A DNA stretch of 64,000 nt, taken from NCBI RefSeq assembly GCF_000269805.1, contig NZ_JH711481.1:1613789-1677788 (forward strand). Direction: 5' to 3'. Both the position numbers and the translations under genes were made by a program. Below are positions 20,325 through 31,027 of the stretch, in pieces (positions within the stretch are counted from its first letter, which is position 1; every line of letters begins with the position of its first letter). The DNA is from Actinomyces massiliensis 4401292 (GTDB taxonomy: Bacteria > Actinomycetota > Actinomycetes > Actinomycetales > Actinomycetaceae). The notes beneath the pieces are model-generated. The model did no database searches and had not been told where the DNA came from. It saw only the letters and a program-made list of their open reading frames with translations.

Positions 20325-20576
20325 TTGATTCATCTGATTCATCCCGATTCCGCACCCGCTCTCTTACCCGCCGCCGGTCCGGAGCGCCCGGGGCTCCCGG
20401 GTCACCGTCGCGCCTGGCTGTCGGCCGGCTGGCGCCAGGAGCGCGGCGACGTCCCCGGCTGGGTGCTGGTCACCCTGATGACCGCGGGCCTGGTCGTCAG
20501 CCTGTGGGCTGTGGCCGGGCCGGCCCTGACCCAGGTGTTCAACGATGCGATCGCCAAGGTCACCGGTGCCATCTGA
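20325..20576 (+). CDS. small Flp/Tad pilin-like membrane peptide
   Basis: An 83-residue protein with a charged N-terminus (WRQERGDVPGW) followed by one hydrophobic helix (VLVTLMTAGLVVSLWAVAG) and a short extracellular tail. Size and position fit the major Flp pilin cut by a TadV-type prepilin peptidase. The usual Glu-Tyr just after the Gly cleavage site is not present; the sequence there is GDVPGWVL. The TTG at 20325 is used because GAAAGGA lies eight bases upstream. No prepilin peptidase gene is in the window. It may instead be a DUF4244-like Tad-associated peptide. Confidence 0.7.
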   Translation: MIHLIHPDSAPALLPAAGPERPGLPGHRRAWLSAGWRQERGDVPGWVLVTLMTAGLVVSLWAVAGPALTQVFNDAIAKVTGAI

Positions 20577-21015
20577 GAGCGGGGCCCGCGGAGGCCATGG
20601 GGGTCCTGGTCCGCGAGGGGGCGAGCGCGGCTCCGCCGTGGTGGATTTCGTGCTGGTGGGCGTGCTCGTGATCGCTGTGTGCGTCGCGCTCCTCCAGCTC
20701 GCCCTGGGGCTGCATGTGCGCAATGTCCTCACCGATGCCGCCGGCGAGGGGGCCCGCAGGGCCGCACTGGTCGGCGGTACCGAGGGCGAGGCGGCCGAGC
20801 GCGTCGCCATGCTGACCGATGCCGTGCTCGCGGACGGCTACGTCGATGAGGTGACGGTGACGCGCACGAGGGTCGGCGGCACACCGGTGGTGCAGGCCGA
20901 GGTGACGGCGCCCCTGCCGGTGCTGGGGTTGTTCGGCCCTGCGGGCGCGCTGCGGGTGACCGGCCATGCAGTCGATGAGGCCGCGCTCGTGGCCGCCGCG
21001 CGGGAGGAGCCATGA
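20566..21015 (+). CDS. TadE-like pseudopilin
   Basis: About 149 residues from the GTG at 20566 (an ATG at 20545 is also possible); the start overlaps the end of the pilin gene. RGSAVVDFVLVGVLVIAVCVALLQLAL is split by a prepilin-type cleavage region and gives one N-terminal membrane helix. The next residues (GLHVRNVLTDAAGEGARRAA) match TadE, and the rest is a small soluble beta domain. It is likely a minor pilin of the Tad system. Confidence 0.82.
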   Translation: MPSESGARGGHGGPGPRGGERGSAVVDFVLVGVLVIAVCVALLQLALGLHVRNVLTDAAGEGARRAALVGGTEGEAAERVAMLTDAVLADGYVDEVTVTRTRVGGTPVVQAEVTAPLPVLGLFGPAGALRVTGHAVDEAALVAAAREEP

Positions 21016-21491
21016 GGGGCGGTGGGCGCGCACCGGGGTGCGGCAGCGGCCATCGCGCGCCCCGTGCCGTTATCGGGACGCGCGGGCAGGCATGCCAGGA
21101 GGGCGGCAATGCTCCCGTGGAGTTCATCGGCTGGACTCTCATCCTGGCCGTTCCGGTCCTCTACCTGCTCGTGGCGTTCGCCCAGGTCCAGTCGGCGTCC
21201 TTCGCGGTCGCCTCGGCCGCCGATGCCGCCGGCCGCGTCTTGGAGGTGGAGAAGGGGGAGGCCGCCATGGAGCACGCGCGCGTCGCTGTCGACCTGGCCC
21301 TGTCCGATCAGCATATCGACGCCGATCCTGCGGGCTCCCTGAGTCTGACGTGCTCGGATGACGAGTGCGCCAGGGGCGTCGTGCGCGTCGAGGCCGGAGT
21401 CGACCTGCCGATCTTGGGGGCGGCCGGCATCGGGCGCGATGCGGTCGTGCTCGACGCCGAGCGCGCCGTGAGTCTGGCGAGCTCCGAATGA
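21012..21491 (+). CDS. second TadE/TadF-like pseudopilin
   Basis: A 159-residue protein whose ATG overlaps the previous stop (ATGAG). After a basic N-terminus comes GGNAPVEFIGWTLILAVPV, with the Glu that typifies TadE/F pseudopilins, then one membrane helix and AASAADAAGR-type residues (FAVASAADAAGRVLEVEKG). The exported part has two Cys in CSDDEC that could form a disulfide. Confidence 0.8.
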   Translation: MRGGGRAPGCGSGHRAPRAVIGTRGQACQEGGNAPVEFIGWTLILAVPVLYLLVAFAQVQSASFAVASAADAAGRVLEVEKGEAAMEHARVAVDLALSDQHIDADPAGSLSLTCSDDECARGVVRVEAGVDLPILGAAGIGRDAVVLDAERAVSLASSE

Positions 21492-21994
21492 GGCTCGGGC
21501 TGCTGCGTCACTTGCGCCACTATCACTATCGCTGCGCTGCCCGCGCCGCCGATCTGCGGCGCGGCGAGGACGGTCAGACCCTCCTGCTGGGCATCGGGGT
21601 GATCGCGGTCGTGGCCGGGCTCCTCCTGGTGGTGGCCGGCGCCACCGCCGTCTACCTGGATCTAAAGACCCTGACCTCGCTGGCGGACTCGGCCGCCGCG
21701 GCCGCCGTCGACGGTGTGGACGAGGACGGCTACTTCGAGGGAGTCGAGGCCGACGGCGCGCCCGGGCGCCTGACGGATGCGGGCGTGCGCGCGGCGGCGC
21801 TGTCCGATCTGGAGGCCCAGCCCGACCGCCTGGAGTCGGTGCAGGTGCGTCAGGCATCCAGTCCCGACGGCACCACCGCGATCGTCACGCTCACCGCCGA
21901 ATCACGGCCTCCCTTCCTGCCGTGGGGTGCGATCCCGGCCCGGGGCTTCACCATCACCGCGACTGGTTCGGCGCGGGTATCGACGTCCCAGTGA
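21488..21994 (+). CDS. TadG-like pilus protein with N-terminal membrane helix
   Basis: A 168-residue protein starting at the ATG that overlaps the preceding stop. RRGEDGQTLLLGIGVIAVV begins the single membrane helix, and LTSLADSAAAAAVDGVDE is the TadG/Rv3660c-type post-helix segment. It completes the set of one pilin and three pseudopilins. No gene follows on this strand for 650 bp, so the operon probably ends here. Confidence 0.78.
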   Translation: MRLGLLRHLRHYHYRCAARAADLRRGEDGQTLLLGIGVIAVVAGLLLVVAGATAVYLDLKTLTSLADSAAAAAVDGVDEDGYFEGVEADGAPGRLTDAGVRAAALSDLEAQPDRLESVQVRQASSPDGTTAIVTLTAESRPPFLPWGAIPARGFTITATGSARVSTSQ

Positions 21995-22202: not shown

Positions 22203-22553
22203 TCAGCCCTCCGCAGCCGCGGCGCTGGGAGCCGTGGCTGCGGAGGCGGCACTGCCACGGTGCAGGCGCGTTCCGAGGAGCGCGCGCCGGTTGTGGGCGA
22301 GTTGGGCGATGTAGGCGCGCTTGACCGTGATGAGGATGCTGATCCCGACGATGACGTAGAAGGAGTTCGCGATGACGCTGGGCCAGGCGCCGGTGTAGGC
22401 GCAGTTGGCGACCAGCAGCACGCTGCCGGTGAGATTGAGCGCCTGGTAGCGCAGGGAATCCCCCACGATCCGCCCCTTGGAGACCAGGGCGTATGCCAAG
22501 AGGAGCTCAGCGGCGCCGATCCAGCCGCCGGTGGAGATGAGGATGCTCGCCAT
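22203..22553 (-). CDS. small four-helix membrane protein of the CBU_0592 type
   Basis: A 116-residue integral membrane protein with hydrophobic stretches at about 1-20 (ISTGGWIGAAELLLAYAL), 35-52 (ALNLTGSVLLVANCAY) and 57-78 (PSVIANSFYVIVGISILI), then a basic and alanine-rich cytosolic tail. The pattern GDSLRYQALNLTGS with N-S-F-Y in the last helix fits the CBU_0592 family of unknown function. The ATG at 22553 was chosen; an upstream TTG at 22598 has no better ribosome site. It is divergent from a LysR-type gene 95 bp away, and such a pair often has the regulator acting on the membrane protein. Confidence 0.7.
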   Translation of the reverse strand: MASILISTGGWIGAAELLLAYALVSKGRIVGDSLRYQALNLTGSVLLVANCAYTGAWPSVIANSFYVIVGISILITVKRAYIAQLAHNRRALLGTRLHRGSAASAATAPSAAAAEG

Positions 22554-22648
22554 GTCGTTCACAGGCAGGATCGTGAACCTCGAACCAATGAAGATCAATC
22601 ACATCTATCTGCATAGTCAGTGCAGTTTTCCTGAATTAAGGTCGAAAC

Positions 22649-23560
22649 ATGGACATCTCCGCTCACCGTATCGCCGTCCTTCTCGCCGTGCACCGCGCCG
22701 GAGGCGTTGTGGCGGCTGCGGATCTGCTCCACCTCAGTCCGTCGGCGATCAGTCAGCAGATCCGTCTGCTTGAGAAGGAGGCGGGCGTGCGTGTGCTCGA
22801 TCGCACGCCCGAGGGCGCCGTCCTGACCGACTCCGGACGGGTGCTTGCCGAGGCCGCCGAGCGCATCGAGTCCGAGCTGACCACCGCCCGGCGCGAACTC
22901 GCGCTCATCGACGGCGATACTCCGACCGGCACCGTCCGCATCGGCACCTTCGCCACGGCGATCCGCGCGCTCCTCTTGCCGCTGCTGCTCACGCTGGAGG
23001 AGTCGCTGCCCGGCATCGAGCTGGTGATCGAGGAGGTCGAGGAGCGCGCGGCCCTGGCGCGGCTGCGGCAGGGCACGCTCGATCTCGTCCTGCTCGAGCG
23101 CGACTCGCACACCCTGCCGGCTCCGCCGCGCGCCATGAACGACGTCCCCCTGCTGGACGAGTCGTGGCTGGTGGTCGTCCCGCCCGGGCAGGCGGCCCCG
23201 AGCACACTGTCCGATCTGGTGCGCGCCACCTGGATCGATCTGGATCCGGCGACGGCCGGTGCCTTCGCGCTGGCCCGGCTCTCGCGCCAGCTCGGCACGC
23301 CGTTGAGCACCCGGCATGTGGTTGACGACTACGACGTCGTCCTGGCGATGGTGGGTCAGGGCCTTGGGTATGCGATTCTGCCGGAGCTCGCGGTGCACTC
23401 CGGCGTCGTCCCCGACGGCGTCGTCGTCTCCAGCTTGCCCGGCCTGGGCACCCGCCAGCTCGTCGTGCGTCATCGTGTCACCCGCACCGAGCCGACCAGT
23501 GCTGCGCGCGCCGTCCTGGAGGCGATGCTGGTGCGCGCCCAGGCCCTCGAGACGGGCTGA
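22649..23560 (+). CDS. LysR-family transcription regulator
   Basis: A 303-residue LysR-type regulator. The N-terminal winged helix is residues 1-60 (VVAAADLLHLSPSAISQQIRLLEKE is the recognition region), then the linker helix and a periplasmic-binding-type sensing domain with GTVRIGTFATAI and DLVLLERDS. The effector is unknown. It stands alone, divergent from the small membrane protein gene, whose expression it may control from the shared 95-bp spacer. A dyad terminator follows at 23603-23633. Confidence 0.87.
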   Translation: MDISAHRIAVLLAVHRAGGVVAAADLLHLSPSAISQQIRLLEKEAGVRVLDRTPEGAVLTDSGRVLAEAAERIESELTTARRELALIDGDTPTGTVRIGTFATAIRALLLPLLLTLEESLPGIELVIEEVEERAALARLRQGTLDLVLLERDSHTLPAPPRAMNDVPLLDESWLVVVPPGQAAPSTLSDLVRATWIDLDPATAGAFALARLSRQLGTPLSTRHVVDDYDVVLAMVGQGLGYAILPELAVHSGVVPDGVVVSSLPGLGTRQLVVRHRVTRTEPTSAARAVLEAMLVRAQALETG

Positions 23561-23602
23561 GTGCCGGCTGGCTATGACCCTCGTCGAGATCGACATTATC
23601 GA

Positions 23603-23633
23603 ATGAGATCGACGGCGACACCGCCGATCTCAT
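23603..23633 (+). terminator. hairpin after the LysR gene
   Basis: ATGAGATCG and CGATCTCAT are perfect inverted arms around an inner GGCG/CGCC stem, followed by CCCAAAA rather than a T-run. It may act as a terminator between the LysR gene and prfB. Confidence 0.5.
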
Positions 23634-23676
23634 CCCAAAAAGTCGACCTCGACGCACCCTGCCGTAGACTCGCGGG

Positions 23677-24798
23677 GTGGCCACCGACTTCTCCGCTCAG
23701 ATCGAACGACTCCGACACACCTACGCCTCCATTGCGGCGGTGACGGATCCCGAGGCGCTGCGCGCGCGCATCGCGTCCCTGTCCGAGCGGGCCGCCGCCC
23801 CGGATCTGTGGGACGATCCGGAGGCCGCCCAGGCGGTCACCTCCGCCCTGTCGCACGCCCAGGCTGATCTGGGGCGTGTCGAGGAGCTCGGCGCGCGCAT
23901 CGACGATCTCGAGGCTATGGTCGAGATGGCCGGGGAGGAGAGCGGTGAGGACGCCGATGAGCTGCTCGCCGAGGCCGACAGCGATCTGGAGGCCATCTCC
24001 AAAGATCTGTCCGACTTGGAGATCCGCACCCTGCTGAGCGGCGAGTACGACCAGCGCGACGCCGTCGTCACGATCCGCTCGGGCGCCGGGGGAGTGGATG
24101 CGGCCGACTTCGCCGAGATGCTGCTGCGCATGTATACCCGCTGGGCCGAGCGTCACGACTACTCCGTCAAGGTCCTCAATACCTCCTACGCCGAGGAGGC
24201 GGGGCTGAAGTCCGTCACCTTCGAGGTCCACGCCCCCTACGCCTACGGCACGCTCAGCGTGGAGGGCGGCACGCACCGCCTGGTGCGCATCAGCCCCTTC
24301 GACAACCAGGGCCGCCGCCAGACCTCCTTCGCCGCCGTCGAGGTCATCCCGCTCATCGAGTCCACCGACCATATCGATGTCCCGGAGACCGACATCCGCA
24401 TCGACGTCTTCCGCTCCTCGGGGCCCGGCGGGCAGAGCGTCAACACGACCGACTCCGCCGTGCGCATCACCCACATCCCCACCGGCCTGGTGGTCTCCAT
24501 GCAGGATGAGAAGTCCCAGATCCAGAACCGCGCCGCCGCCATGCGCGTGCTTCAGTCGCGTCTCCTCTTGCTCAAGCAGCAGGAGGAGGACGCCAAGAAG
24601 AAGGAATTGGCGGGGGACGTCAAGGCGTCCTGGGGGGATCAGATGCGCTCCTACGTGCTCAATCCCTATCAGATGGTCAAGGACTTGCGCACCAACCACG
24701 AGGTCGGCAATCCCGATTCGGTTTTCGACGGCGACATCGACGGCTTCATCGACTCCGGCATTCGCTGGCGCAAGCAGCAGGAGAGCGCCGAGAGCTGA
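23677..24798 (+). CDS. prfB: peptide chain release factor 2
   Basis: A 373-residue class I release factor reading UAA and UGA. It has the SPF tripeptide anticodon at 206-208 ([11 protein letters not shown]) and the GGQ loop at 251-253 ([15 protein letters not shown]). The GTG at 23677 starts the gene directly, without the in-frame TGA and +1 shift of the E. coli gene. The last 159 bases (24640-24798) are matched by a diverged copy at 26580-26738, so the present 3' end may have been supplied by an inserted element. The conserved C-terminal helix ([20 protein letters not shown]) is complete, so the protein should be functional. Confidence 0.95.
24640..24798 (+). repeat. left copy of the prfB 3'-end duplication
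   Basis: 159 bp from CAGATGCGCTCC to the stop codon. The copy at 26580-26738 has the same length with no gaps and encodes 42-43 identical residues of 53. The two form direct repeats around the cassette 24799-26579. Confidence 0.9.
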
Positions 24799-24916
24799 TC
24801 CGGCAGAGATCACGACGCCTGTCAGGCGGCGAGGCGGTGCTAAGGGTGCCTGTGGTTCACGATGTGCTGCCTTGATGCCGGCCAGTCAGGGCGGGCCGGG
24901 CCTCTGCCTGTAGGCT

Positions 24917-25585
24917 TCACCACCACTCCTCGCACGGGGCGTAGTACTCGGTACAATGTGCAACTGCACAGTAGTTGCACCACAGTATGACGCATGCGAC
25001 TCCTAGAGGAACGCCACCGAAAACGCAGGGAGTGCAGCATTCGAACAGTGCCTGATAATCGTAAGTACAGCATGTAGCCGGGGGCATGCCAAAAGCGCTG
25101 CAACAGTTGATTCCGTCGCTTGCGGCCAGCGAGTCATCGAGCCCTCCGGGGGCGGCCTCCTGCTCATTGAGACGACGAACGATGTTCTCGCCGTCGGTGT
25201 AGAATACCAATAGCGCGGTCCTGGGGGCGGATGACTCGCTGGTCTCCTTGACCAGGATGAAAAATAGTTCCTCGCTCATCATCAGAGCGGCTTTGAGGAT
25301 AGTAGTCCCTCGCGATGAGATCGATGCGGTAACTCCAGTCGCAGCGGCGCCTACTGCCTCGCTCGGGTGTCCTGCTTCGATGACTCGACTCTGCAGGTCG
25401 GGAAGAATGGAGTCGCGCTCCTCCTGGGTGGCGTCACGTGTTCCAGAAAGACTCTCCTCGAACCACTGACGATCCCCCTGCTGGGCTGCCGCTGCGGTAG
25501 AAGTGGTAGGCCCCCCTGCAAGTGCGTAAACTGATGCCGCGAACGATCCGATAATTCCTCTCAGAATTGTGCGTCTGGTCGACAT
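24917..25585 (-). CDS. Tat-exported protein with 12-cysteine C-terminal domain (halocin C8-like organisation)
   Basis: A 222-residue precursor. STRRTILRGIIGSFAASVYAL is a twin-arginine signal peptide. Residues about 35-158 form a Cys-free soluble region. Residues 161-218 hold twelve Cys (three CC pairs, CTPC, WCNYC and others) in a hydrophobic aromatic-rich domain ending EEWW. This arrangement of Tat signal, Cys-free middle and Cys-rich end resembles halocin C8-type bacteriocin precursors, where the middle acts as immunity and the end is the toxin; homology is inferred from layout only. GAGGAGGAG before the ATG is a strong ribosome site. It is downstream of a MauE-like gene by 42 bp and probably co-transcribed, which fits a need for disulfide formation. 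Confidence 0.7.
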   Translation of the reverse strand: MSTRRTILRGIIGSFAASVYALAGGPTTSTAAAAQQGDRQWFEESLSGTRDATQEERDSILPDLQSRVIEAGHPSEAVGAAATGVTASISSRGTTILKAALMMSEELFFILVKETSESSAPRTALLVFYTDGENIVRRLNEQEAAPGGLDDSLAASDGINCCSAFGMPPATCCTYDYQALFECCTPCVFGGVPLGVACVILWCNYCAVAHCTEYYAPCEEWW

Positions 25586-25627
25586 TCTCTCCTCCTCTGT
25601 CGTGTGGGGGTGAAGGTGGTCTCGAGG

Positions 25628-26125
25628 TTATCTTGTTTTAATGAGCTTTCTGTACCGCAACGATGATGCTGTGACGATGAGGACTGCGACAAGGCATGAT
25701 AGTGCGAGGTTCTTGGTGTCTCCCAGTGGGCGAGGTAATATGAGGGTCGGCATCAGCGCGAGGGTGAGGATTGTGTTGCGCACGACAAGGCCGGCACTGA
25801 CTCTCGTCGGAGATGTGCCACATCCACAGTCTTCGGGAGGGTTTTTTCTGACCAAGACGATAATCATGGCCACCGAGAATATGCACAACAGAAGAAAAAG
25901 GATCGCGGCCGAGGGCAGAGGTGATACATTTGAGGCTAGTGCAAGGCCGCCGAAGAACTCCAGCGGGGGAATGATAGATGCAAGAACTCGAGCCTCTCGC
26001 ACTCCTGTCAGTCCGTAGCTCATGATCGCCGCCCAAAACAAGTTCGGCGCCCCCATCTTGGCTGCGCCCGACCGTACGAAGTAGCATCCGACGAGAAACC
26101 TGAGCAATTCATAAAGAACTGTCAC
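25628..26125 (-). CDS. MauE/DoxX-like redox membrane protein
   Basis: About 165 residues with four membrane segments (LYELLRFLVGCYFV, ASIIPPLEFFGGLAL, SAAILFLLLCIFSVAMIIVLV, and two weaker ones near 120-160). The loop DCGCGTSP after the third segment carries the C-x-C motif of the MauE family, which helps form disulfides in partner proteins such as methylamine dehydrogenase. Start chosen at the GTG at 26125, after GAGGAG; a TTG at 26149 would add eight residues. It is the first gene of the cassette and lies just upstream of the 12-Cys exported protein, its likely client. Confidence 0.78.
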   Translation of the reverse strand: MTVLYELLRFLVGCYFVRSGAAKMGAPNLFWAAIMSYGLTGVREARVLASIIPPLEFFGGLALASNVSPLPSAAILFLLLCIFSVAMIIVLVRKNPPEDCGCGTSPTRVSAGLVVRNTILTLALMPTLILPRPLGDTKNLALSCLVAVLIVTASSLRYRKLIKTR

Positions 26126-26579
26126 GCTAAGACGCTCCTCGACTCCCAATCAGAACCTGACTTGCCCCATCTCCATTCGAGCTTCATATTAGCGTGCATT
26201 TTTTTGATGGCAAGGTCTCGACGGCAAGATCGCCTGGAAAGTTCCTGGGCGGGGGCCTGGTGCTTTATGCGTGAGAGCGCTTGCCCGACTGGCTGGGAGG
26301 TTGCCAGGCGCGGCCAATGGTCAGGGTTGCGGGCGCACTGACAAAGGTGTTCTGCATTAGCGTGACGTATGAATTTTGGGAGCGTATGCGGACAAGGGCC
26401 TGTGCTCCAGCGCGGGTACGGCACAGGTACAGTATCGGCGTGCGTCCTCTTGTCCTCATTCGTTTGAGTCGCGTCCCCAGGCTCGTCCGAGTACCTCACG
26501 CCCGCTATCATTGCCCCTTGTCTCGCCGTCAGGACGCTGGGTCCTTAGCCGTCCAGGAAGAGCCACTCGCTCCGAGGGC
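26126..26579. other. upstream region of the cassette operon
   Basis: 454 bases without a recognisable gene. The part next to 26126-26220 is AT-rich (CATTTTTTTGATGG) and should contain the promoter of the two minus-strand genes. The homology to prfB begins abruptly at 26580. Confidence 0.5.
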
Positions 26580-26738
26580 CAGATGCGCTCCTGCGTGCTC
26601 AACCCCTACCAGATGGTCAAGGACCTGCGCACGAGCTACGAGGTCAGCAGCCCCGGCTCCGTCTTCGACGGCGACATCGACGGCTTCATCGACGCCGGCA
26701 TCCGCTGGCGCAAGCAGCAGGAAACGGCCGAGGACTGA
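26580..26738 (+). pseudogene. displaced 3' end of prfB
   Basis: An orphan fragment encoding the last 52 residues of release factor 2 ([16 protein letters not shown] to the stop) with no start or ribosome site of its own. It differs from the end of the intact gene at about ten residues but keeps the frame, stop position and following terminator. This fits an original chromosomal gene end separated by the insertion at 24799-26579. Conserved [20 protein letters not shown] shows that the loss of function is recent or that the fragment came from a related species. Confidence 0.85.
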
Positions 26739-26769
26739 TCGGTTCGCTTCTTCAGAAACATCGTCGGAG

Positions 26770-26804
26770 TCAGGGATCCCCCGGAGGGGTCCCTGATTTC
26801 TTTT
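26770..26804 (+). terminator. rho-independent terminator after the prfB fragment
   Basis: TCAGGGATCCCC pairs with GGGGTCCCTGA around a CGGA loop (one bulged T), followed by TTTCTTTT. It is one of the few canonical T-tract terminators in the window and probably is the native prfB terminator. Confidence 0.85.
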
Positions 26805-26849
26805 CCACGCGCCCCTGATTCCTTCAAGGTTCGATTGAGGTCACAAAAT

Positions 26850-27821
26850 ATGAGGCGTACCGTGAATTTTATGAGCGCATCACATGGAAAACCTCGGTCG
26901 GTGGAAGTCTCGTCAACACTCTCGTCTCTCGAGTCCTCGGATCTCAGTGGGGATCGATCGGATCAAGATCATCACCTCACTGTGGGCGGCAAGGTTCTGC
27001 GCATCGTGATTGCGTTTGTGATGATGTTCGCCTGTGCGCTCACGCCGGCCTTGTTGAAACAGATTCCTGCGATCCAGTCCTTTGCTCTCGCACATGAGAA
27101 TCCCGATGATCTCTTGGAGTCCTTCGCGGTGGGGTCGTGTGTGTTGCTGATCTATGGGGCGGCGGTGGTGCTCGCTCTTATCCTGTGCTATGTCTTGGGT
27201 CGCACGCTTGACCGAGGTCGGCATGTCAGTGTGGGGCTGCGCATCGACAGGCGTGCGCTGCTCTGGCTGGTGGGGATGATTCTGGCTGCGCTCGTCGTGG
27301 ACCTTGTGGTGGCCAGCATGCTCCATGCGCTCGGGCTTGCTGGTGGAGACCAGCCGGTACCCCAGGGTCCACCGTGGCTCATGATCGTCGAGCCCTTCTC
27401 CATAGCCTTCCTTCTTCAGGGAATTCCTGAGGAGGTGATTTGGAGAGGGTGGCTCTTCTCCTCGTTGGGTGAGACGCGTTTTGCAGCAGTGTCCAGCGTC
27501 CTCGGATTCACTGCTCTTCATCTCTTCTCTCAAGTAGGTCAGCAGAATCTCATCGAGCACCTCACATACCTCGTTTTGCCGTGCGGTTTCGCGGTGACCG
27601 CGTTGATTGTTCGGCTGGTATCGAGGTCAACCTGGGCGGCGATCGGAGTGCACGGAGGATTTCATATGGTGAACTACTTCGTGTCCGGTTCCATGCATCT
27701 CCCCGCTGACTCGGTGACCTGGGTGCTTCAAGGACTTCTCTGGGCCGCGGTCGGCCTTCTCATTCTCGCCTTCCACCGCCGTCGTCAGCAATTGGCGGCG
27801 TTGACAGACCTGCCATGTTGA
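26850..27821 (+). CDS. CPBP-family intramembrane glutamic endopeptidase
   Basis: A 323-residue membrane protein with about seven hydrophobic segments. The CPBP (Abi/CAAX) catalytic motifs are PEEVIWRGWLF (EExxxR), FTALHLF (FxxxH) and HGGFHMVNYF (HxxxN). Members process prenylated proteins in eukaryotes; in bacteria many protect their hosts against bacteriocins or process peptides. It lies just beyond the prfB-end cassette carrying the Cys-rich Tat protein, so an immunity role is conceivable but unproven. The ATG at 26850 follows TTGAGG at nine bases. Its 3' end overlaps the convergent ogt gene by 62 bp. Confidence 0.85.
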   Translation: MRRTVNFMSASHGKPRSVEVSSTLSSLESSDLSGDRSDQDHHLTVGGKVLRIVIAFVMMFACALTPALLKQIPAIQSFALAHENPDDLLESFAVGSCVLLIYGAAVVLALILCYVLGRTLDRGRHVSVGLRIDRRALLWLVGMILAALVVDLVVASMLHALGLAGGDQPVPQGPPWLMIVEPFSIAFLLQGIPEEVIWRGWLFSSLGETRFAAVSSVLGFTALHLFSQVGQQNLIEHLTYLVLPCGFAVTALIVRLVSRSTWAAIGVHGGFHMVNYFVSGSMHLPADSVTWVLQGLLWAAVGLLILAFHRRRQQLAALTDLPC

Positions 27822-28311
27822 CACCCTCCATCTCCAGGAGACGTTCCTTCCGGTCGACCCCGCCTGCGTAGCCGCGCAGGCTCCCGTCGGAGGCGAGCAC
27901 ACGGTGGCACGGCACAATGAGAGTGATCGGGTTGTGCCCGACCGCGCCACCCACCGCCTGGGCGGACATCTGCTTCCTGCCGGTACGCCGGGCAACCTCG
28001 GCGGCGATGCGGGCATAGGTGCTGGTGGCGCCGAGGGGGATGGAGAGCATGATGGAGGTGACCATTTTCCTGAAGTCGGAGCCCTCGATATTGATCGGCG
28101 GAGTGAAACCCGGGTCAGTACCCTCGAAGTAGGCGCCGAGCCACTGGGCCGTCTGCATGAAAACAGGTAGACGGGGCTGGAGTACCGCGTCGTCGTCGAT
28201 CGTCGAGCGGTCGTACTTCTGACCGTCGAACCACAGGCCCGTGAGATACTCGCCATCGCTGGCCATGGTCATGGTGCCAAGGGGTGACTCGTAGTGACTG
28301 AGATAGTGCAT
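27760..28311 (-). CDS. ogt: methylated-DNA-protein cysteine S-methyltransferase
   Basis: A 183-residue O6-alkylguanine DNA repair protein that moves the alkyl group to its own Cys. The acceptor motif is IVPCHRVLASDGSLRGYAGG, with the DNA-binding helix before it (PLGATSTYARIAAEVARR) and the N-terminal SPLGTMTMASDGEYLTGLWF. It starts at the ATG at 28311, preceded by GAGAGGAAGGAA. The C-terminal codons overlap the CPBP gene on the other strand. Confidence 0.93.
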   Translation of the reverse strand: MHYLSHYESPLGTMTMASDGEYLTGLWFDGQKYDRSTIDDDAVLQPRLPVFMQTAQWLGAYFEGTDPGFTPPINIEGSDFRKMVTSIMLSIPLGATSTYARIAAEVARRTGRKQMSAQAVGGAVGHNPITLIVPCHRVLASDGSLRGYAGGVDRKERLLEMEGVNMAGLSTPPIADDGGGRRE

Positions 28312-30359: not shown

Positions 30360-30413
30360 CTCGGTTAGTCTAGTCGGTTGACTAGGCGTGATCTGACGGA
30401 GGACCATGGCACC

Positions 30414-30638
30414 ATGAAGACGGTGAAGGTCCATGAGGCGAAGACGCACTTGTCTGCGCTGCTGGCGGAGGTGGAACGCGGCTCCATGATCGATATCGCC
30501 CGGGGGCGACGGACGATCGCGCGGCTGGTCCCGGTAGACGACGGCGAACGGGAGCTCGGGTTCGGCGGCTATCACTTGCCCGACTCCTTCTTCGATGAGC
30601 TGCCTGAGGAGGAGCTGAGCGCCTGGGAGGAAGCGTGA
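30414..30638 (+). CDS. Phd/YefM-type antitoxin
   Basis: A 74-residue type II antitoxin. The N-terminal MKTVKVHEAKTHLSALLAEVERG is the DNA-binding and dimerisation fold of the prevent-host-death family. ARGRRTIARLVPV finishes it, and the acidic C-terminus (FDELPEEELSAWEEA) is the part that should wrap the toxin. GGAGG precedes the ATG at 30414. It overlaps the toxin start by four bases (GTGA). It should repress its own operon. Confidence 0.87.
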   Translation: MKTVKVHEAKTHLSALLAEVERGSMIDIARGRRTIARLVPVDDGERELGFGGYHLPDSFFDELPEEELSAWEEA

Positions 30639-31027
30639 GCGGTTATCTGCTGGATACACACGCTCTCATGTGGGCTATCAATGAGCCTTCTCGTTTGGGA
30701 TCCGATGCGGTCAGGGTGCTGAGTGCGCGGGAGAATCGTGTGGTGGTATCAGCGGCGAGTGCGTGGGAGCTGTTCACTAAGCACCGTATTGGCAAGCTTC
30801 CTGGCGCGGGCCCCTGGCTGGATGCGCTTGAGGATCACGTTGTGCGGCTCGGGGCGGACATACTGCCGATCGAGTGGCATCATGCTCGTCTGAGTGGCCA
30901 GCTGGAGTGGGGGCATCGCGATCCTTTCGACCGTATGCTCGCCGCGCAGGCGATCCGGGAATCTCTGATTCTCATCACCGCCGATCCGGCCTTCTGGAAG
31001 CTTTCCGGGCTCAGAACTCTTTGGTGA
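30635..31027 (+). CDS. PIN-domain toxin of VapC type
   Basis: A 130-residue PIN-domain ribonuclease, presumably acting on tRNA or rRNA when free. Acidic catalytic positions are visible in YLLDTHALMW (D7), SAWELFTK (Glu near 45), DPFDRMLAAQA (Asp near 98) and LITADPAFW (Asp near 116). The GTG start overlaps the antitoxin stop. A strong double hairpin follows. Confidence 0.88.
   Translation: MSGYLLDTHALMWAINEPSRLGSDAVRVLSARENRVVVSAASAWELFTKHRIGKLPGAGPWLDALEDHVVRLGADILPIEWHHARLSGQLEWGHRDPFDRMLAAQAIRESLILITADPAFWKLSGLRTLW

What the first reader, a model, noticed from the sequence alone, without database searches (positions are those of the whole stretch)
24917..26125. Paired MauE-like redox protein and Tat-exported 12-Cys protein: possible disulfide-rich bacteriocin system
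The exported precursor has a twin-arginine signal, a Cys-free middle and a 58-residue end with 12 Cys and many aromatic residues, an organisation like halocin C8 precursors, where one protein yields both immunity and toxin parts. The gene before it encodes a MauE-type membrane protein with a C-x-C loop, a family that assists disulfide formation. The two-gene unit is compact and sits on a likely mobile cassette. Tat export of a folded, oxidised peptide with its own oxidase partner would be an uncommon bacterial arrangement.
Basis: partly seen in the sequence, partly recalled or inferred. Interest (0 to 1): 0.76.

Follow-up and report, generated by a model that had tools for sequence, protein, structure and literature searches.

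The report
MauE-linked exported cysteine-rich precursor
A rare, mobile two-gene cassette in Actinomyces bacteria pairs an exported protein whose tail holds twelve cysteines with a membrane redox protein that probably helps to form its disulfide bonds; it may be a new sort of secreted antibacterial peptide, but no activity has been shown.

Summary
A 222-aa protein (25585-24917, minus) has a twin-arginine signal, a Cys-free middle and 12 Cys in residues 161-218. Directly upstream lies a MauE-family membrane protein (26125-25628; Pfam MauE E=2.6e-21) with a DCGC loop. Relatives are rare but real: nine loci are known (seven in the window's genus, Actinomyces; two in the Clavibacter family). All nine have a MauE-type gene next to the Cys gene (upstream in seven, downstream in two; in one the MauE frame is broken). 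Ten Cys are invariant and two more come and go together. The cassette sits at different chromosomal sites. In the window it lies behind prfB between two copies of the prfB 3' end, and six of 15 genus-mates examined show the uninterrupted site. The halocin C8 link fails on models, profile comparison and Cys spacing; only the architecture is alike. The closest precedent is MauE beside Cys-rich candidate precursors in Streptomyces (PMC7794033), seen again here. Best reading: an exported, disulfide-rich effector precursor with its own redox partner. A bacteriocin role is plausible but unproven; neither immunity nor activity has been shown.

The parts
25628..26125 (-). MauE-family membrane protein, 165 aa, GTG start with GAGGAG upstream; DCGC motif in a loop between hydrophobic segments
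   Evidence: Pfam MauE E=2.6e-21, DoxX sub-threshold; DCGC invariant in the 7 aligned sequences, window included; hydrophobic segments
24917..25585 (-). Tat-type exported Cys-rich precursor, 222 aa, ATG with AGGAGG upstream
   Evidence: Open frame and sequence; homologues
25478..25585 (-). signal region, residues 1-36 (STRRTIL ... hydrophobic stretch ... TAAAA)
   Evidence: Sequence; twin Arg kept in 8 of 9 family members, not in the open frame of A. gerencseriae
25112..25474 (-). Cys-free middle (residues 38-158), predicted helix plus antiparallel sheet; pro-domain or possible immunity part
   Evidence: AlphaFold2 block means of pLDDT 65-89 over residues 51-130; Foldseek best match stefin, E=0.86, not significant
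24932..25105 (-). Cys domain, residues 161-218, 12 Cys, 6 possible disulfides
   Evidence: 10 Cys invariant in 8 sequences; C161 and C173 both present (5) or both absent (3)
24640..24800 (+). prfB 3' end, copy 1 (in the complete prfB 23677-24798)
   Evidence: 161-bp direct repeat, 87 percent
26580..26740 (+). prfB 3' end, copy 2, on the far side of the cassette and contiguous with the CPBP (Rce1-like) gene as in relatives without the cassette
24801..26579 (.). inserted cassette between the repeats, about 1.8 kb, G+C down to 54 percent against 65-72 percent in 22500-24500; the stretch beyond it (26500-28000) is also low, 55-64 percent

Best explanation
A mobile two-gene unit for making an exported, disulfide-rich peptide. 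The precursor carries a twin-arginine signal, so it is probably exported by Tat after its middle domain has folded. MauE, in the membrane, takes electrons from the precursor's thiols (directly, or through a thioredoxin-like partner) and passes them to the quinone pool, so that the C-terminal domain acquires its 5-6 disulfides outside. The middle domain acts as folding aid or pro-domain, and perhaps as self-protection; an extracellular protease then frees the compact 60-residue Cys domain, which most probably acts on competing bacteria. Shown: gene pair, homologous family, conserved Cys pattern, conserved MauE linkage, mobility, TatC in the genome. Inferred: Tat use, disulfide formation by MauE, cleavage, antibacterial role.
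For: MauE neighbours the Cys gene in 9 of 9 loci, although MauE hits number only 25 in the 49 genus genomes searched. One member (G024) was found through its MauE gene after the homology searches had missed it, and it has the same Cys spacing within one or two residues. The Cys domain is better kept than the middle: 70-78 vs 41-42 percent identity to A. oris and A. bowdenii, 53 vs 23 percent to Clavibacter (the fixed Cys are part of this). Ten Cys invariant, two present or absent together. Twin Arg in 8 of 9; TatC in the genome. Purifying selection against A. israelii: dN 0.035, dS 0.218 for the Cys protein; 0.079, 0.400 for MauE. Different chromosomal sites and an insertion behind prfB. Precedent: MauE beside candidate precursors with at least 8 Cys in Streptomyces (PMC7794033, section 7 read whole).
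Against: No family model matches the Cys protein, so function rests on context. Apart from MauE no neighbour recurs in the loci read; no transporter or separate immunity gene comes with the pair. The Cys domain is conserved rather than diversified and acidic (pI 4.05, no Lys or Arg in window residues 159-222), unlike many cationic, fast-changing bacteriocins (recalled). Its structure is not predicted with confidence (pLDDT about 50). In A. gerencseriae the twin Arg is not in the open frame, and in G024 MauE is split over two frames. A. oris already has a general MdbA/VKOR oxidation system (PMC5478893, passages seen), so MauE might not be needed.
Confidence: 0.5

Rival explanations
1. A surface or secreted non-toxin: a disulfide-stapled adhesion, signalling or colony-interaction protein that stays whole, with the middle domain as its working part and the Cys domain as a stabiliser or anchor, again matured by MauE.
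For: Cys domain conserved rather than diversified; many aromatic residues (11 in 64); Actinomyces are oral biofilm colonisers (PMC5478893, start of abstract seen); no immunity gene within the cassette.
Against: Sporadic, mobile two-gene unit at different sites, more usual for competition genes (inference); the middle domain changes faster than the Cys domain, so the Cys domain looks like the functional end.
Confidence: 0.25
2. A MauA-like redox or cofactor protein: an exported 12-Cys polypeptide needing MauE, as methylamine dehydrogenase light chain does (six disulfides; recalled), perhaps carrying a protein-derived cofactor.
For: Same partner family and similar number of Cys (recalled); MauE is speculated to help the disulfides of that subunit (PMC7794033).
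Against: No Pfam match to the light chain at E up to 10 and no solved chain at E below 0.4; no large subunit or other mau gene seen among the neighbours (by eye). The nearly constant Trp202 is missing in G024.
Confidence: 0.08
3. A metal- or thiol-buffering exported protein (CC pairs binding Cu or Zn), MauE keeping its thiols in the right redox state.
For: Three CC pairs and a CxxC in the Cys domain.
Against: Hydrophobic, aromatic-rich domain (GRAVY 0.64), unlike metallothioneins (recalled); one Cys of each of two CC pairs is dispensable as a linked set, which suits a disulfide; no metal gene noticed in the loci read (by eye), except an iron-transporter permease gene beside the Clavibacter pair (by eye).
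Confidence: 0.07
4. A halocin C8 homologue.
For: Same gross layout: signal, long N-terminal part, Cys-rich end.
Against: TIGR04449 and NF040679 models not matched at E up to 10; hhalign probability below 1 percent for whole, middle and end, though with only three halocin sequences; Cys spacing 0,9,0,9,0,2,10,4,2,4,6 against 2,7,3,7,12-13,7,8,8,6-7; no MauE annotated within 2.5 kb in the three halocin loci fetched.
Confidence: 0.04

Closest known systems
MauE-containing candidate RiPP families of Streptomyces (decRiPPter, PMC7794033)
   Same: MauE gene beside a gene for a precursor with many Cys, without other orthologues of the mau cluster; proposed to modify the precursor
   Different: Their candidates are ORFs shorter than 100 aa in clusters filtered for transporter, peptidase and regulator; here a 222-aa Tat-type precursor with a folded middle domain in a bare two-gene unit. 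The Cys-rich ORFs found here beside MauE in Streptomyces-type genomes do not match the profile of this family significantly (best 4.1 bits). The decRiPPter precursor list (supplement) was not available, so kinship with it was not tested
Halocin C8 and halocin C8-like domain proteins (TIGR04449)
   Same: Single precursor: signal, long N-terminal part, Cys-rich C-terminal part
   Different: 10 Cys with other spacing, no MauE annotated in the three loci fetched, no detectable sequence or profile similarity
Methylamine dehydrogenase light chain MauA with MauE/MauD
   Same: Exported Cys-rich polypeptide that needs MauE (MauA details recalled)
   Different: No sequence match, no catalytic partner subunit and no other mau gene seen next door
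MdbA/VKOR disulfide machine of Actinomyces oris (PMC5478893, passages)
   Same: Membrane protein linked to menaquinone drives oxidation of exported proteins
   Different: General system acting on Sec-translocated precursors; the MauE here is rare, linked to one substrate gene, and of a different family

Membership tests
MauE (PF07291) | Match above Pfam gathering score | tested here: met
   76.7 bits against cut-off 27
MauE (PF07291) | Cys pair in a loop between membrane segments (feature recalled and read from the alignment) | tested here: met
   DCGC invariant in the 7 aligned sequences, between hydrophobic segments
MauE (PF07291) | Thiol oxidation activity | not testable with these tools
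   Needs biochemistry; described as speculated in PMC7794033
Halocin C8-like domain (TIGR04449 / NF040679) | Match to the curated models | tested here: not met
   No match at E up to 10 for the window protein and 5 homologues, while the recalled halocin C8 peptide scores E=1.1e-16 to TIGR04449; no TIGR04449 match in the genome at E up to 0.001
Halocin C8-like domain (TIGR04449 / NF040679) | Ten-Cys spacing | tested here: not met
   Spacings of 8 family members and 3 halocin-type proteins compared
Halocin C8-like domain (TIGR04449 / NF040679) | N-terminal part gives immunity, C-terminal part kills | not testable with these tools
   Bench work needed
Methylamine dehydrogenase light chain (PF02975, accession recalled) | Profile match | tested here: not met
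   No Pfam match to it at E up to 10; no PDB chain at E below 0.4
decRiPPter MauE candidate families | MauE gene next to a precursor gene with at least 8 Cys, no other mau genes | tested here: met
   12 Cys; neighbours read by eye; the rest of the genome was not searched for mau genes
decRiPPter MauE candidate families | Sequence kinship of precursors | not tested
Tat substrate | Twin-arginine signal and a TatC in the genome | tested here: met
   Sequence; TatC E=1.1e-53
Tat substrate | Export lost without TatC | not testable with these tools
   Bench work needed
Integrative element at a gene 3' end | Insertion bounded by a duplicated 3' end, empty site in relatives | tested here: met
   161-bp repeat; contiguous prfB-CPBP in 6 of 15 genus-mates
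Integrative element at a gene 3' end | Own integrase | tested here: not met
   The three ORFs of over 100 aa upstream of mauE up to 26796 match no Pfam family at E up to 0.01; ORFs in other frames under the two genes were not scanned. A DDE-transposase remnant lies by the A. israelii copy

The most novel reading that the evidence does not exclude
A new class of bacterial antibacterial peptides: Tat-exported, six-disulfide effectors made from a single precursor with a built-in pro/immunity domain and matured by a dedicated MauE oxidase, spread as a minimal two-gene mobile cassette among oral and plant-associated actinobacteria.
Probability: 0.3. Interest if true: 0.75.

Novelty: new variant of a known kind. 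Interest (0 to 1): 0.5.

Why it matters
It would give a two-gene model system for what solitary MauE proteins do, a role described in print as speculated, and a defined family (9 members, invariant Cys pattern) to purify and assay. It would also test whether Tat export and disulfide formation outside the cell can be coupled through a private oxidase.

Tried and rejected
Halocin C8 kinship: tested by models, profile comparison and Cys spacing, rejected. MauA kinship: no match. Phage or plasmid origin: no match in phages or plasmids at E up to 1, none of 10 pattern-matching stretches confirmed in viral contigs, no PHROGs or PADLOC match.

Hits dropped before counting members: G048/L006 (an unrelated 704-aa frame), G365/L025, G999/L055 (four stops inside), and G1299, G1462, G1405, G1428 (partial matches in 581-763-aa frames). 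Limits of the searches: in the wide profile searches only the best 7-13 candidates per genome were scored, itself missed the G024 member, and the genome-contig scan works through two short exact patterns. The nine loci are therefore a lower bound.

Structure: whole protein mean pLDDT 50 with a usable middle domain only; Cys domain alone pLDDT 50, pTM 0.29, not interpreted. Foldseek best match stefin B, E=0.86, not significant. An automatic count of Cys-rich ORFs near MauE at 7 Cys per 60 aa was too noisy: 5 of 18 control tiles of the window, one of them the finding itself; 6 of 25 Actinomyces loci, with three true pairs lost to the filter and two false ones kept; 10 of 30 Streptomyces-type loci. 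Statements on neighbours therefore rest on reading the ORFs printed and their Cys spacing. Promoter and terminator scans gave no more than shuffles. MauE topology was not settled: hydrophobicity gives 4-5 segments, so the side on which the DCGC loop lies is not claimed.

Paper searches: nothing relevant except PMC7794033; halocin C8: listing; passages of PMC12893001; MdbA/VKOR; MauE with RiPP as whole words: one paper, PMC7794033; nothing used. That no paper describes this family rests on these searches of open-licence papers only.

Full report
WHAT IS THERE. The window is C1:1613789-1677788 of a 3.37-Mb genome. Its genus contains A. israelii DSM 43320, whose Cys protein is 92 percent identical, so the genus is Actinomyces. 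On the minus strand lie a MauE-family gene (26125-25628, GTG start, 165 aa) and, 42 bp on, a 222-aa Cys-rich precursor gene (25585-24917) with a good ribosome-binding sequence. The precursor has MSTRRTIL at its start, no Cys in residues 1-160, and 12 Cys in residues 161-218. One of 20000 shuffles of the protein packs 12 Cys into 64 residues. No Pfam, NCBIfam, PHROGs or PADLOC model matches it at E up to 10. MauE matches PF07291 at 2.6e-21 and DoxX below threshold.

THE FAMILY. A search of 49 genomes of the genus (own genome included) gave 6 matches: 5 real and 1 (G048) spurious. A profile search of 213 genomes of the family gave 6, all in the same genus, adding G036. In the family of the Clavibacter genome (Microbacteriaceae, recalled) 3 of 398 genomes matched; two are real (G213, which is the Clavibacter, and G472) and one is spurious. 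Samples of the phylum (396 genomes) and the order (396 genomes) added none: 1 and 4 further matches were rejected. A search for MauE genes in the 49 genus genomes gave 25 hits in 20 genomes. A script that listed Cys-rich ORFs in all 25 loci (1.5 kb each side, less at contig ends) showed the six known pairs and a seventh, in G024, that homology had missed. So nine loci are known: seven of 49 Actinomyces genomes and two of 398 in the Clavibacter family. Only part of the candidates per genome is scored in wide searches, so nine is a lower bound.

CONSERVED LINKAGE AND CYSTEINES. All nine loci have a MauE-type gene next to the Cys gene: upstream in seven and downstream in two (A. gerencseriae, G036). 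In G024 the MauE frame is split over two frames, which may be decay or a sequencing error. In eight aligned sequences, leaving out the near-identical A. israelii copy, ten Cys are invariant. The other two, C161 and C173, are both present in five and both absent in three, as expected for one accessory disulfide; this may be a single event in evolution. Spacing is 0,9,0,9,0,2,10-12,4,2,4,6 in the 12-Cys type. The Cys domain is better conserved than the middle domain in all five pairs compared, partly because the Cys themselves are fixed.

MOBILITY. The last 161 bp of prfB (24640-24800) recur at 26580-26740 with 87 percent identity, and the two genes lie between the copies. I compared the prfB 3' region of 22 other genomes (15 of the genus, 7 of the order). 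In 6 of the 15 genus-mates (G001, G019, G020, G021, G030, G039) prfB runs without a break into the CPBP region of the window, one alignment from about 26576 to 27783-28232 at 81-88 percent identity. In the other 9 genus-mates and the 7 of the order other genes follow prfB, or the match does not extend. A. israelii has the pair at the same prfB site, but its contig ends before the far side. A. oris (G021) has this site empty and carries its own pair elsewhere, between an M16 peptidase gene and an IS110-type transposase. A. bowdenii, A. gerencseriae and Clavibacter have it at yet other places. A. gerencseriae also has an IS110 transposase nearby, and the A. israelii copy a DDE-transposase remnant. 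G+C falls to 54 percent in the cassette, but the native stretch beyond it is also low (55-64 percent), so composition alone proves little. Neighbours other than MauE differ from locus to locus. CPBP (Rce1-like) genes, some of which serve in bacteriocin immunity elsewhere (recalled), lie beyond the far repeat in the window and one gene away from the pair in A. bowdenii; the window copy belongs to the empty site of relatives and so is not part of the cassette. A histidine kinase gene follows the Clavibacter pair.

HOW IT PROBABLY WORKS. The twin Arg is kept in eight of nine members and the genome has TatC. The middle domain is predicted to fold (helix and antiparallel sheet, block means of pLDDT 65-89); the Cys domain is not predicted with confidence. 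I infer that the protein is exported by Tat with a folded middle domain, that MauE provides oxidising power for the Cys domain, and that the Cys domain, the most conserved and most distinctive part, is the effector, perhaps released by proteolysis as halocin C8 is (PMC12893001, passages). The rare, patchy, mobile distribution suggests a role in competition. None of export, oxidation, cleavage or activity has been shown. A. oris has MdbA and VKOR with menaquinone as general oxidation machinery (PMC5478893, passages), so MauE would be a dedicated addition.

COMPARISON WITH WHAT IS KNOWN. Halocin C8: the recalled peptide found 15 plasmid records of haloarchaea, and three of these were fetched and aligned. 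Layout is alike, but models, profile comparison (probability below 1 percent, with only three halocin sequences) and Cys spacing all fail, so it is not a member. Methylamine dehydrogenase light chain: same partner family and similar Cys number (recalled), no sequence match. Closest in kind: the decRiPPter paper reports three Streptomyces candidate families with mauE and a precursor of at least 8 Cys, and proposes that MauE modifies the precursor (PMC7794033, section 7 read whole). Here, MauE was found in 42 of 121 genomes (58 hits) of an unnamed genus with genomes of 5.5-12 Mb that I take to be Streptomyces: one of its loci is 89 percent identical to a Streptomyces plasmid stretch, and a peptide from another finds three Streptomyces plasmids only. 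I screened 30 of the 58 loci by script and read the Cys-rich ORFs that were printed. Seven have a short (59-85 aa) peptide with 7-10 Cys upstream of MauE (L056, L060, L068, L069, L070, L074, L076; L070 and L076 are nearly the same) and two a larger Cys-rich protein (L084, L085). None matches the profile of the Actinomyces family significantly (best 4.1 bits), and five of the nine were also tried against Pfam and NCBIfam, with no match above a curated cut-off. The Streptomyces plasmid locus also carries a TlpA-type thiol protein, a SARP regulator and an ABC transporter gene under the match, which the Actinomyces pair lacks. MauE next to a Cys-rich exported or precursor protein is thus a recurrent theme of actinobacteria, and the present family is a distinct, larger, Tat-type variant of it.

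VERDICT. Observation confirmed; a MauE-matured exported Cys-rich protein is likely; a bacteriocin role is possible, at about even odds or less; halocin membership rejected.

Noticed in passing
window 24640-24800 and 26580-26740: Duplicated prfB 3' end flanks the cassette; the far copy is contiguous with the CPBP gene as in relatives without the insertion. What follows prfB varies much in the genus, so the site may be an insertion hot spot.
   Followed up: yes
L114 (G020 C1:2178681-2178950): In G020 the prfB match stops at residue 90 of the 140 queried although the 3' DNA is present, out of register: a frame change near the 3' end or a sequencing error.
   Followed up: no
L053 (G024), about 1355-1780 minus: The MauE reading frame next to the 10-Cys-type precursor is split over two frames.
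   Followed up: partly
L084, L085 (genomes G1008, G1049): MauE lies near a larger Cys-rich protein (10 Cys in 60 aa); the L084 protein has a double-psi beta-barrel match (DPBB_1, E=3.5e-06, just below the Pfam cut-off), a different kind of MauE partner.
   Followed up: partly
L009 5873-6724 and window 26835-27821: CPBP (Rce1-like) membrane protease genes lie near the pair in A. bowdenii and in the window; coincidence or an unlinked immunity candidate.
   Followed up: partly
window 30378-31027: Overlapping small genes for a Phd-type antitoxin (E=9.3e-07, just under the cut-off) and a PIN-domain toxin (E=1.2e-15).
   Followed up: partly
window 20545-21994: Run of small genes of a Tad pilus type; the first matches TadE (E=5.4e-09), the others were judged by eye.
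   Followed up: partly
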